Shown piece by piece: positions 29,654 to 35,040 of a DNA stretch of 64,000 nt; positions within the stretch are counted from its first letter, which is position 1; each line of letters opens with the position of its first letter. This DNA comes from Deltaproteobacteria bacterium. GTDB lineage: Bacteria > Desulfobacterota > Binatia > Binatales > Binataceae. The position numbers were made by a program, and so were the translations under genes. The notes below the pieces were generated by a model. That model did no database searches, was not told where the DNA came from, and saw only the letters and a program-made list of their open reading frames with translations. The stretch spans positions 1 to 64,000 of the forward strand of contig JAJXZF010000039.1 of assembly GCA_021780225.1 (NCBI GenBank), written 5' to 3'.

Positions 29654-30439
29654 TCAGCCGAGCGCGTTTTTGGTGTCGATCGTTTGTCCGCCGTCCACAA
29701 CGTAAGCAGCGCCGGTAACGAAGCTCGCCAGCTCCGACGCCAAAAACAGAACGACGTTCGCTACATCTTCTGGACGTCCCAGCCGCTTCAAAGGTATCCG
29801 CTTCGCCATTTTTTCGCCAACCCCCGGCGCGCTTATCGCCGACGCGATCAGCGGCGTGGCGATTACCCCCGGACAGACGCAGTTCGCGCGGATTCCGAAC
29901 CGTCCGTACTCGACCGCAACCACTCGCGTCAGGTTGATCAGTCCGGCCTTCACAGCGTTGTAGCCGGCGATTCCCTGGTCGGCGAACAGCCCGGAAATCG
30001 ACGCGGTGTTCACGATCGCGCCGCCGCCCTGCTCGCGCATGATCGGAATCGCGGCCCGCATCGCACGAAAGCACGCCGTCAGACCGATATTCAGCGTATG
30101 GTCCCAGCTTTCGTCGGTCGTGTCCGCCAGCCGGACCATCAATGAAACGCCGGGCGGAAAAGCAAAGGCGTTATTATGGAGAAAATCCAGCCGCCCAAAT
30201 TTCTCGCGTGTGAAGCCGATCGCGCCGTGGATGTCAGCCTGCTTGCTCATGTCGGCGCGGAACGCCGCGGCCGATCCGCCGAAAGCGGCAATCTCCGCCG
30301 CGACCGACTTCGCCGCCGCTTCATTGAAGTCCGCCACCACCACGGCGCCGCCGGCGCGCGCGTAGCCAATCGCGGTGGCGCGTCCGATTCCCGAACCCGC
30401 TCCCGTCACCAATCCAGCTTTGCCTTTGAATTCGATCAT
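29654..30439 (-). CDS. Short-chain dehydrogenase/reductase (SDR)
   Basis: GLVTGAGSGIGRATAIGYARAG, FLHNNAFAF (NNAG variant), YNAVKAGLINLTRVVAVEYG, RANCVCPGVIATPL, VVDGGQTI. Confidence 0.93.
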   Translation of the reverse strand: MIEFKGKAGLVTGAGSGIGRATAIGYARAGGAVVVADFNEAAAKSVAAEIAAFGGSAAAFRADMSKQADIHGAIGFTREKFGRLDFLHNNAFAFPPGVSLMVRLADTTDESWDHTLNIGLTACFRAMRAAIPIMREQGGGAIVNTASISGLFADQGIAGYNAVKAGLINLTRVVAVEYGRFGIRANCVCPGVIATPLIASAISAPGVGEKMAKRIPLKRLGRPEDVANVVLFLASELASFVTGAAYVVDGGQTIDTKNALG

Positions 30440-30480: not shown

Positions 30481-32086
30481 TCAGGCCGCGTCCCACTCCA
30501 GCTCCAGCCGTTCGAGTCCGCGCAGGAAGAAGTGCTCGTGATGGCGCAGCGATTGTCCAGGCGCGAGCCGCGGATTCGGGAGCCGATCGAGCGCGTTTCA
30601 AGCGCGATCCGACCTTCCAACCGCGCCAGCGGCGCGCCGATACAAAAGTGAATGCCGAAGCCGAACGCCATATGGTTGAACGCGTCCGCACGGCGCACGT
30701 CGAAGCGATCGGGATCGTCAAAACGCGCCCGATCGCGATTGCCGGAAGCATACAGCAGTTCGAGATGCGCGCCGGCGGGTATGCGCACGCCGCCCAGCTC
30801 AACCTCTCGCGTGGCGGTACGGAACAATCCCTGCACCGGCGCGTCCAACCGTAGCGCCTCTTCGACAGCATTCGCAATCAGCCTGCGATCGGCGAGCAAA
30901 GCCTCGTATTGGTCGCGATTGTTCATCAGAAGCAGCATCGCGCTGCCGATTAAATTCGTCGAGGTCTCATTGCCGCCGATCAAAAGCTGCTTGAGGATGC
31001 TCAACATCTCAGGCGTGTTAAGCGGCGTCTCGCCTTTGACCCGGACGTTGAGCAGATCGGTCAGGAAATCGAGGTTCGGCCGGATTCGCCGTTCTTCGAG
31101 CATCGCCGCGAAATAATGCTGAAACTCGACCTCGCTGCGGGCGCACTCGATTTGCCGGTCCAGCGGCAACGGTCCGAAGCGCGCGCGCATGTCGTCCGAC
31201 CAGCGTTTGAAACGATCCATGTCGGCGGTCGGCACGCCGAGAATTTCCGCAATTACCTCCATCGGGAACGGATAGGCGAAACTCTTCACGATTTCGGCGC
31301 GTCCCCGCTCGACAAACCGATCGATCAGGCCGTTGGCGACTTCCCGCATCCGCGGCTCCATCACCGACACACGCCGCGAGGTGAACGCCTTGCCGACCAG
31401 CTCGCGGAATCGCGTATGCACGGGAGGGTCGGCGGTGACCATCGTCGGCGTTGCCGGATAACCGGCGTCGAGCACCGCCTGCACTTCCGGAGCGAGACCG
31501 CTATCAAGCGCGAGCGATTGCGCCGACGAGAAGGTTTCCGGATCTTTCAGAACGCGAACGATGTCGTGATAGCGCGTGACCACCCATAAATCGAAACGCT
31601 CGCTGTGGAATACCGGCAGCTCTTCACGCGCCTTTCGATACAGGTCGAAGGGACATTCGCGCTGGTCGGGCGCGGTCGGATTGAAATCGATGCCGCGCGC
31701 CGCGCCCGAAACCGGACATGATGCGCCGCTTGGCGCCGCGTGCGCATCCGGTTCGGAGCCGTCGCCTGCCGCTTCCGGCGCGTCTATGTCAACGAGCAGT
31801 TCGCCGCCATCGATCGTCACGGCATAGGCTCGCAGGTCGGCGGCAAATTTCGTTTCCGGCGAGGCCTTTCCCGTGCCCAGATCGAAAATCGCGCCATGAA
31901 TCGGGCAGATTACGCATCCGTTCGCGACCTCGCCGTCCTCCAGACGTCCGCCCGCATGCGAGCAGATCGCGTCGATGGCGGAGAATCGGCCGCCGATTCG
32001 GGCAGAATCGGACGGCCCGCGGCGTCGGCTCTGAAGGTGCGGCCTTCGGTTATCTCATCGATTGCGGCGACTCTGATCCGCGGCAT
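30481..32086 (-). pseudogene. Apparent Rieske [2Fe-2S]-cytochrome P450 fusion interrupted by two frameshifts (near 31996-32006 and 30588-30596)
   Basis: 32086 downward: MPRIRVAAIDEITEGRTFRADAAGRPIL, frame break, RIGGRFSAIDAICSHAGGRLEDGEVANGCVICPIHGAIFDLGTGKASPETKFAADLRAYAV, in frame with MTIDGGELLVD... of the P450 ORF 30453..31820. P450 motifs: GGNETS, EEALR, FGFGIHFCIG. C-terminus after RIALET resumes in another frame as LDRLPNPRLAPGQSLRHHEHFFLRGLERLELEWDAA-stop (stop at 30481). Confidence 0.8.
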
Positions 32087-32105: not shown

Positions 32106-32522
32106 TCAGCCGGATCGTGGACGGAATTGCGGCAGCGAAATCTCATCGGTCAGACGCTCGAAGACCGCCTCGACCGCCATGCCAATCCTGACGCTCTCAG
32201 GGGAGCATCCGACGATGTTCGTCATCATTGTCGGGCCTTCATCGAGGCGCACCAGCGCGACGACGTACGGCGTATCCGCGGCGAACGCCGCGGATACCGG
32301 CCGGCGCACGATCGTGAACGACGAAACTTCGGCTCCGCCGCTCGCCCGCACCCACTCCACCCGCTCGCTCATGCATCGCGAGCAGTACAGGCGCGGAAAG
32401 AACTGAAAATGGCGGCATTCTCCGCAGCGCTGAATCATCAGTTCGCCGCGCCTGCATCCTTCCCAGAATGGCAGCGTTTCGCGCGTCGGAACGGGAACCG
32501 GTTTGCCGTGAGTCTCAGCCAT
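32106..32522 (-). CDS. Zn-ribbon/OB-fold (DUF35, ChsH2-like) acyl-CoA-associated protein
   Basis: LPFWEGCRRGELMIQRCGECRHFQFFPRLYCSRCMSERVEWVRASGGAEVSSFTIVRRP. Confidence 0.9.
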   Translation of the reverse strand: MAETHGKPVPVPTRETLPFWEGCRRGELMIQRCGECRHFQFFPRLYCSRCMSERVEWVRASGGAEVSSFTIVRRPVSAAFAADTPYVVALVRLDEGPTMMTNIVGCSPESVRIGMAVEAVFERLTDEISLPQFRPRSG

Positions 32523-33716: not shown

Positions 33717-34845
33717 TTAATTCGCCGCGAATCCGAAAACCCGCGCGACGTTGTCGTGCGCCATCTTGCGCGTGTCGGCGGCGGAGATTCCCGCGAAATT
33801 GTGCGCGACTTTCTTGCGCGAGTATGGCCATACGCCTTCGGTATGCGGATAGTCCGAACCCCACATCAGGTTCTCGACGCCGATCATCTCGCGCGTCAGC
33901 ACGCCTGCGCGGTCGTCCTCGAACGTGGCGAAGAACTGGCGATGGAAATAGGCGCTCGGAGTTTCCGGCAGCTTCGGCTCCATCCAGCCGCGATGGTCGT
34001 CCCACCAATGGTCCATGAAGGAAAGCACCGACGCGATCCAGCCGATTCCGCCTTCGACCATCGACCATTTCAACCGCGGGAACCGCATCGGCGCGCCGCC
34101 CCAGATAAGGCGCATCACCGTGTCGTACATCATGAACTTGATGACGCCCACGTTGATTCCGCCGGCGCCGGGACCGTGCGCGATTCCATACGGCTCGCGG
34201 CCGCTCAGATGCATGCTGGCGACCAGGTTCAAATCCTGCAGCGCCGCCCACAGCCGATCCCATTCGGGCAAATTGTAAGGCCGCTCATCAACCCACGCCG
34301 GCAGCATCACGGTCGCGAAGCCCATCTTCGCCGCGCGTTCCGCCTCTTTGACCGCGTTTTCGATCGGACCGCGATTCGGCAGCATCGCGGCGCCTTTGAG
34401 ACGCGCCGGATGAACCGAGCAATACTCGGCGAGCCAATCGTTGTAGGCGCGGCAGCAGGCGTGGATATACTCGGCGTCGGGCGCGCGCACGATATGCAGG
34501 CCCACGCCCGGATAGATGACTTCTCCGGAAACTCCGTCGAGCTCCTGATCCTTAAGGCGCTCGTTCGGATCCCGCGAACCGGGCCGGTTCTGGTCGTAGC
34601 TGTAGCCTTTCGGCCCCCGGAATCTCCATCCCTTGCGCCTTCAAGTCCGCCATCGGTCCCTCGAAAGCGAGCGGGCGCGGACGCATCCCGTCGATCACGA
34701 TATAGTCGCCGCTTTCGTCGAGCCGTTCGATACGCGGCGCGCGATCGCGCCACTTCGCGTCGATTCGTTTGAGCCACAGATCCCGCGGCTCCATCACGTG
34801 CGAGTCCGCCGACAGCAGGCTACCGCCGTATTCGCCTTCGGCCAT
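33717..34845 (-). pseudogene. Amidohydrolase-family (TIM-barrel metal-dependent hydrolase) gene with one apparent frameshift near 34611-34620
   Basis: N-terminal part MAEGEYGGSLLSADSHVMEPRDLW ... LKAQGMEIPG in one frame; PKGYSYDQNRPGSRDPNERLKDQELDGVSGEVIYPGV joined to ORF 33717..34505 (MWGSDYPHTEGVWPYSRK) in another. Break falls at a C5 tract (G5 on the coding strand). Confidence 0.82.
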
Positions 34846-35040
34846 AGGTTCTCTCCAGCCTCGCGCGGCATTAGAATAACCGCGCTCCCGCGCGCAATTT
34901 AATTCATTTTGGAAAAGGGCGGTAACGCCCGCTGCGCACGTCGCGGCGGGCGAATCACGGCGGCGCGGATGCGCAGCTTCCGCGCGGCGGATATAATCAG
35001 GATGCTTTCTGATCGACGCAGGAAATCTGAATTCAAGCTC

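What the first reader, a model, noticed from the sequence alone, without database searches (positions are those of the whole stretch)
30481..32086. Apparent Rieske [2Fe-2S]-cytochrome P450 fusion protein
Seen directly: on the - strand, a complete Rieske-type domain (CSH-x16-CPIH) runs without a stop into the P450 ORF, so the annotated P450 start (GTG at 31820) is internal. The P450 part has the I-helix GGNETS, EEALR and the heme-Cys motif FGFGIHFCIG. Established: most bacterial P450s use separate ferredoxins; known self-sufficient fusions mostly use CPR (CYP102), PFOR/FeS (CYP116B) or a C-terminal ferredoxin (MCCYP51FX). Inference: an N-terminal Rieske ferredoxin may deliver electrons to the P450, an architecture I cannot place in a described class. 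This is my best candidate for an undescribed system here.
Basis: partly seen in the sequence, partly recalled or inferred. Interest (0 to 1): 0.75.

Follow-up and report, generated by a model that had tools for sequence, protein, structure and literature searches.

The report
Rieske ferredoxin fused to cytochrome P450
A soil-bacterium lineage encodes one protein in which a Rieske iron-sulfur electron carrier is joined to the front of a cytochrome P450, an arrangement not in the usual list of P450 types; the copy in this window has two frame-breaking deletions, but unbroken copies exist in two related genera.

Summary
On the - strand a dioxygenase-ferredoxin-type Rieske domain (CSH-x16-CPIH) runs without a stop into a CYP109-like P450 with the usual heme-domain motifs. 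The fusion is not a frame artefact: a same-genus genome (88% identical) and another genus of the family (about 70%) encode it as one uninterrupted frame of about 536 codons. Both domains are under purifying selection, the linker is loose, and the three fused P450s form one clade (100/100). Within the genus the gene is being lost (deleted in one genome, broken in another and in a second copy in the window's own bin) while assayed neighbours stay intact, so the window copy is more likely a recent pseudogene than a sequencing error. No fusion turned up outside this family in about 1,700 genomes searched, and no paper found describes one. Likely mechanism: flavin reductase to tethered Rieske [2Fe-2S] to heme, a Rieske variant of ferredoxin-fused (class V) P450s that still needs a separate reductase. 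A separate Rieske ferredoxin is known to drive the P450 DoxA. Function here is inferred.

The parts
32004..32086 (-). N-terminal piece of the Rieske domain (ATG 32086, MPRIRVAAIDEITEGRTFRADAAGRPI)
   Evidence: 86% identical to residues 1-28 of the intact homologue; AGCGAGG lies upstream; in the homologue L003 an AGGAGGAGG ribosome site precedes the same start
32000..32006 (-). first frame break: 4-nt deletion relative to the intact homologues
   Evidence: DNA alignment with L002/L003 and L030
31787..31988 (-). rest of the Rieske [2Fe-2S] domain; ligand motif C-S-H ... C-P-I-H at 31964-31896
   Evidence: Pfam PF00355 3.6e-08; AlphaFold model of the intact homologue's domain pLDDT 92, TM 0.85-0.90 to naphthalene dioxygenase ferredoxin 2QPZ
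31695..31786 (-). interdomain linker, about 30 residues, Ala/Ser/Gly/Pro/Asp-rich, fast-evolving, predicted disordered
   Evidence: dN/dS 0.39-0.50; pLDDT below 50 for residues 106-132 of the homologue
30594..31694 (-). cytochrome P450 domain: GGNETS 30977, EEALR 30863, heme-Cys loop FGFGIHFCIG 30665-30636
   Evidence: Pfam PF00067; motifs; closest solved structures are CYP109-type
30590..30593 (-). second frame break: 1-nt deletion relative to the intact homologues
30481..30591 (-). C-terminal piece of the P450 domain ending ...EHFFLRGLERLELEWDAA*
   Evidence: 92% identical to residues 501-536 of the homologue, in a different frame
29654..30439 (-). short-chain dehydrogenase/reductase, next gene of the cluster
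   Evidence: Pfam PF13561; intact in the relatives' copies examined
32106..32522 (-). zinc-ribbon/OB-fold (DUF35, ChsH2-type) thiolase partner, about 20 nt upstream
   Evidence: Pfam PF01796 and PF12172
32522..33631 (-). thiolase-like / lipid-transfer (SCP-x type) protein
   Evidence: Pfam PF22691; NCBIfam near hits
33717..34980 (-). amidohydrolase 2 family protein, with one +1 frame break at about 34613
   Evidence: Pfam PF04909

Best explanation
The locus holds a one-gene fusion of a Rieske-type [2Fe-2S] ferredoxin (N-terminal, about 102 residues), a flexible linker of about 30 residues and a CYP109-like cytochrome P450 (about 400 residues). Most likely a separate NAD(P)H flavoprotein reductase reduces the Rieske cluster. 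The tethered domain then swings on its linker to the proximal face of the P450 and delivers the two electrons of the catalytic cycle. The P450 hydroxylates a lipid, terpene or steroid-like compound that is further oxidised by the neighbouring SDR and CoA-dependent thiolase genes. Shown by sequence: the fusion, its conservation, both sets of metal-ligand motifs, purifying selection, and a pattern that needs only one origin. Inferred: the electron route, the reductase and the substrate class. In the window's genome the gene carries two frame-breaking deletions and is probably a recently inactivated copy of a gene that is still intact in two relatives.
For: Intact single frames of 557 codons (stop to stop) in G004 and G010, 88% and 73% identical to the window segment. 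Ligand and heme motifs conserved in the three fusions. dN/dS L002 v L003: Rieske 0.22, P450 0.08, linker 0.50. Fused P450s form one clade, 100/100. Rieske domain resembles dioxygenase ferredoxins, proteins whose job is electron delivery. Linker modelled as disordered between two domains (the Rieske domain is confident only when modelled alone). A separate Rieske ferredoxin, SpFdx4, supports P450 DoxA in vitro (PMC12979805). In the class relative G054 a Rieske gene lies directly upstream of a P450 gene. FNR-type reductases are encoded in G000, G004 and G010. Gene decay in the genus: G003 deleted, G001 broken, G000:C64 broken, with the assayed neighbours intact.
Against: No biochemistry. Only three usable fusion sequences, all from draft genomes, the two intact ones from metagenome bins. 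No reductase gene in the cluster, and no PdR/BphA4-type reductase (PF14759) in five genomes of the family. Classical Rieske proteins can have potentials too high to reduce a P450 (range quoted in PMC6237146), although a dioxygenase-type one, BphF, is described as low-potential (reference title in PMC12979805). The gene is lost in several close relatives, so it is dispensable. Its gene context differs between the two genera.
Confidence: 0.7

Rival explanations
1. The window copy is intact in the organism and the two frame breaks are sequencing or assembly errors.
For: dN/dS of the window copy is as low as in intact copies. One further +1 break, in a run of G, lies in the amidohydrolase nearby. 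The window comes from a 118-contig draft assembly.
Against: Of about 50 reading frames comparable with G004 over 64 kb, only this gene and the amidohydrolase of the same cluster show breaks inside the conserved protein; the other two frame changes flagged fall upstream of the recognisable proteins. The same gene is broken or deleted in three other copies in the genus. One of the deletions is 4 nt and not in an obvious homopolymer.
Confidence: 0.3
2. The Rieske domain does not feed the heme: it serves another oxygenase or acts structurally, and the tether is incidental.
For: No electron-transfer data; the linker is long and unconserved.
Against: All four cluster ligands are invariant and the domain is under purifying selection. 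The ferredoxin and flavodoxin fusions in the P450 class list are donor fusions (PMC11173547). No Rieske oxygenase gene was seen among the neighbouring genes examined.
Confidence: 0.15
3. Two proteins are made from the gene, the P450 from an internal start in the linker.
For: In-frame ATG/GTG codons exist around residues 96-108 of the homologues.
Against: No strong ribosome-binding site precedes those codons in both homologues, whereas the outer start in L003 has AGGAGGAGG. The internal codons are not at conserved positions.
Confidence: 0.1
4. The fusion is an artefact of chance read-through, reader error or chimeric assembly.
For: The window's own frame is broken twice.
Against: Same architecture, uninterrupted, in two independent assemblies at 69% protein identity to each other.
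Confidence: 0.02

Closest known systems
Class V P450-ferredoxin fusions (Methylococcus capsulatus CYP51-ferredoxin, MCCYP51FX)
   Same: P450 and a one-electron iron-sulfur carrier in one chain, external reductase needed
   Different: There the ferredoxin is C-terminal to the P450 (PMC9519919); here it is N-terminal and of the Rieske His2Cys2 type, and the P450 is CYP109-like, not CYP51
DoxA with Rieske-type ferredoxin SpFdx4 (Streptomyces peucetius)
   Same: Rieske-type ferredoxin supplying a bacterial P450, shown in vitro (PMC12979805)
   Different: Separate proteins, not fused; SpFdx4 comes from a suf cluster
Class VII P450-PFOR fusions (CYP116B, P450RhF)
   Same: Natural P450 fusion containing a [2Fe-2S] centre
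   Different: C-terminal FMN/NAD(P)H reductase plus [2Fe-2S] ferredoxin domain makes those self-sufficient; no reductase domain here
Rieske ferredoxins of aromatic dioxygenases (naphthalene, 3-nitrotoluene, carbazole, anthranilate)
   Same: Closest relatives of the N-terminal domain by sequence and fold
   Different: Free-standing proteins that feed Rieske non-heme iron oxygenases
CYP109 P450s (CYP109Q5, CYP109E1, CYP109B1)
   Same: Among the closest solved P450s, 42% identity to CYP109Q5 over the modelled domain
   Different: Single-domain enzymes using separate redox partners

Membership tests
Cytochrome P450 superfamily | heme-thiolate loop, ExxR, I-helix A/GGxE/DT | tested here: met
   FGFGIHFCIG, EEALR, GGNETS; Pfam PF00067 above cut-off
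Rieske-type ferredoxin | CxH...CxxH ligands in the Rieske fold | tested here: met
   CSH-x16-CPIH, Pfam PF00355, fold match TM 0.85-0.90 to 2QPZ
Class V P450-ferredoxin fusion | P450 and ferredoxin in one chain without a reductase domain | tested here: met
   intact homologues L002 and L003 hold only Rieske and P450
Class V P450-ferredoxin fusion | ferredoxin C-terminal to the P450, as in the described members | tested here: not met
   Rieske is N-terminal; placement in described members from PMC9519919
Class V P450-ferredoxin fusion | intramolecular electron transfer from cluster to heme | not testable with these tools
   needs stopped-flow or turnover assay
Class VII / CYP116B self-sufficient P450 | C-terminal FMN/NAD(P)H reductase module | tested here: not met
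   no such domain in the intact homologues
CYP109 family | more than 40% identity to named members and committee assignment | tested here: inconclusive
   42% to CYP109Q5, 33-37% to other CYP109s; no CYP nomenclature database available
Rieske non-heme iron oxygenase | Rieske domain plus mononuclear-iron catalytic domain | tested here: not met
   the second domain is a P450

The most novel reading that the evidence does not exclude
An undescribed redox class of cytochrome P450, in which an N-terminal, covalently tethered Rieske ferredoxin is the obligate electron donor of the heme domain. It arose once, in an uncultured soil lineage, and is fed by an FNR-type reductase.
Probability: 0.55. Interest if true: 0.65.

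Novelty: new variant of a known kind. Interest (0 to 1): 0.55.

Why it matters
P450s are sorted by how they get electrons, and natural fusions are prized as compact biocatalysts and as models of partner docking. A tethered Rieske donor would add a new donor type and a new (N-terminal) placement. It would also let Rieske-to-heme transfer, found here in the literature only with separate proteins (DoxA/SpFdx4), be measured inside one chain. The pattern of loss in the genus offers natural null alleles.

Tried and rejected
(1) Artefact of frame or assembly: rejected by two intact homologues. (2) Streptomyces plasmid hits that seemed to cover the Rieske region (H4, H12): H4 is an ordinary P450 gene starting inside the match; H12's record is unannotated, and a motif scan of both loci found no Rieske-P450 frame. 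(3) L132 and other Actinomycete matches reaching towards the linker: no frame carries both motifs. (4) Fusion in viral contigs, phages or plasmids: none found. (5) A long Rieske-bearing frame in the class, G041's, is a Rieske domain at the C-terminal end of a frame without a P450; other long frames were checked only by the motif scan where a locus was held. (6) A combined alignment with Rieske-only fragments (A2) misaligned them onto the P450 and was discarded. (7) A PdR-type reductase as partner: that family is absent from five genomes. (8) The first own-genome search used an antisense frame by mistake; it still revealed the second copy on C64. (9) Cluster-to-heme distance: no model coordinates are available to scripts.

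Full report
OBSERVATION. On the minus strand the stop-free frame from 31988 to 30600 encodes, in order, the C-terminal two thirds of a Rieske domain with CSH-x16-CPIH (31964-31896), a linker, and a P450 with GGNETS, EEALR and FGFGIHFCIG. The frame is 533 codons open while the two other minus frames carry 13-15 stops. Pfam accepts both domains. The first 28 or so residues of the Rieske domain, from ATG 32086, are in another frame. Aligning to intact relatives shows a 4-nt deletion at about 32003 and a second, previously unnoticed 1-nt deletion at about 30592 near the C-terminus. The product length allowing for them is 536 residues.

IS THE FUSION REAL? Yes. A same-genus genome (G004; record JAJZAI010000006.1, deposited as Deltaproteobacteria bacterium FK5.bin90) and another genus of the same family (G010; record JAJPKA010000020.1, Centralia_MAG_59) carry the same architecture in one uninterrupted frame of 557 codons, 88% and 73% identical to the window segment. 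All Rieske ligands and P450 motifs are invariant among the three. In L003 the outer start is preceded by AGGAGGAGG. dN/dS for window v L002 is 0.16 for Rieske, 0.11 for P450 and 0.39 for the linker; for L002 v L003 it is 0.22, 0.08 and 0.50, with synonymous sites near saturation in the second pair. Two constrained domains joined by a loose linker is what a functional fusion should look like. The AlphaFold model of the homologue (mean pLDDT 81.5, pTM 0.72) gives a well-predicted P450 and a disordered stretch at residues 106-132. The Rieske domain is poorly resolved in that model, but alone, with more relatives, it folds at pLDDT 92.

WHAT THE DOMAINS ARE. The Rieske domain is nearest to free ferredoxins of aromatic dioxygenases by sequence (NCBIfam AndAb 8e-19, HcaC 3e-14, both below the curated cut-offs; PDB 5BOK, 2QPZ) and by fold (2QPZ, TM 0.85/0.90). 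The P450 is nearest to CYP109-type enzymes: 6GMF (CYP109Q5) is the top sequence hit and 42% identical in the fold match. CYP109Q5 acts on terpenes, steroids and drugs (PMC6389848 abstract). In a tree of 31 P450s the three fused ones are a clade at 100/100 with stand-alone P450s around them, so one origin suffices.

IS THE WINDOW'S COPY ALIVE? Probably not, or only recently dead. Across the 64-kb window, about 50 G004 reading frames align; four show frame changes. One is this gene and one the amidohydrolase of the same cluster. The other two fall upstream of the recognisable proteins: the pyridine-nucleotide oxidoreductase region at 20.8-22.6 kb is in one frame within the Pfam match, and the 6.9-7.5 kb case lies ahead of a thioesterase-like frame (the thioesterase label is a reading of the sequence, not a search result). 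In the genus the same gene is deleted down to about 41-43 residues in G003, broken with internal deletions in G001, and broken with its P450 body replaced in a second copy on contig C64 of the window's own bin. In each of these the neighbours that the contig covers (amidohydrolase, thiolase, DUF35, SDR, RNase E/G, as far as present) read through in one frame. The C64 and G001 copies are nearly identical in the Rieske part and may share one lesion, so the three broken copies are not certainly three independent events. A sequencing-error origin of the window's deletions cannot be excluded without reads.

DISTRIBUTION. In 148 genomes of the class a Rieske-part search finds the close form only in G000, G004, G010 and the degraded copies. 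A full-length search of a sample of 395 genomes of the phylum, 346 of the class of a Mycobacterium relative, 337 of the class of a Sphingobium relative and 400 of a Chloroflexota phylum finds no match that reaches the Rieske ligands outside this family. These searches scored only the top few candidates per genome. The genome-contig scan rests on two P450 peptides and would miss unrelated Rieske-P450 fusions. Plasmid, phage and viral-contig searches gave none. UniProt and InterPro could not be searched. A different kind of pairing was seen in G054: a Rieske gene ends with TAG just upstream of a 38%-identical P450 gene, followed by a small ferredoxin-like reading frame.

HOW IT PROBABLY WORKS. 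Established: bacterial class I P450s take electrons from small iron-sulfur proteins. In S. peucetius a separate Rieske-type ferredoxin, SpFdx4, with reductase SpFdR3 gives 88% conversion of substrate to DHD by P450 DoxA (PMC12979805). In the C-terminally fused bacterial P450-ferredoxin the tethered ferredoxin is thought to deliver electrons through random encounters (PMC9519919). Inference: here the N-terminal Rieske domain plays the same part. A reductase must come from elsewhere. PdR/BphA4-type reductases (PF14759) are absent from five genomes of the family, but FNR-type proteins (PF00970) are present in G000, G004 and G010. The context in the genus is amidohydrolase, thiolase-like, DUF35/ChsH2-type, fusion, SDR, which suggests CoA-linked breakdown of a lipid, terpenoid or steroid-like compound. 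In G010 the neighbours differ: epoxide-hydrolase/SnoaL-like, molybdenum hydroxylase, zinc alcohol dehydrogenase, cupin. The substrate is therefore weakly supported.

COMPARISON. The ten-class P450 scheme lists ferredoxin fusion (V), flavodoxin fusion (VI), a C-terminal FMN/NADH/[2Fe-2S] module (VII) and CPR fusion (VIII); an N-terminal Rieske is not among those described (PMC11173547). Full-text searches for Rieske-P450 fusions returned nothing that describes one, within an open-access library only. I rate it a new variant of ferredoxin-fused P450s rather than a categorically new system.

Noticed in passing
G000:C64 (L101, 1-4735): A second copy of the cluster sits on a 4.7-kb contig of the window's own bin, 97-99.5% identical to the G001 contig where they align, with the P450 body replaced by unrelated sequence encoding a small protein; either a paralogue or a bin contaminant.
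   Followed up: partly
G003:C6 (L102, 9655-9777): Deletion of nearly the whole fusion gene, leaving about 41 codons between intact DUF35 and SDR genes: a natural null allele.
   Followed up: yes
window 34600-34620: The amidohydrolase of the same cluster carries a +1 frame break in a run of G relative to G004, while the G003 and C64 copies are in one frame over the part seen.
   Followed up: partly
G054:C217 (L104, 1-1453): Rieske gene immediately upstream of a P450 gene with a TAG between them, followed by a small ferredoxin-like frame: a possible unfused Rieske/P450 pair.
   Followed up: partly
G041:C3 (L105, 2620-3924): Rieske domain at the C-terminal end of a 435-aa open frame whose N-terminal 330 residues match no Pfam family.
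   Followed up: no
G000, G001, G003, G004, G010: No Reductase_C (PF14759) ferredoxin reductase in five genomes, although G000 and relatives encode several P450s and Rieske ferredoxins; which reductase serves them is open.
   Followed up: partly
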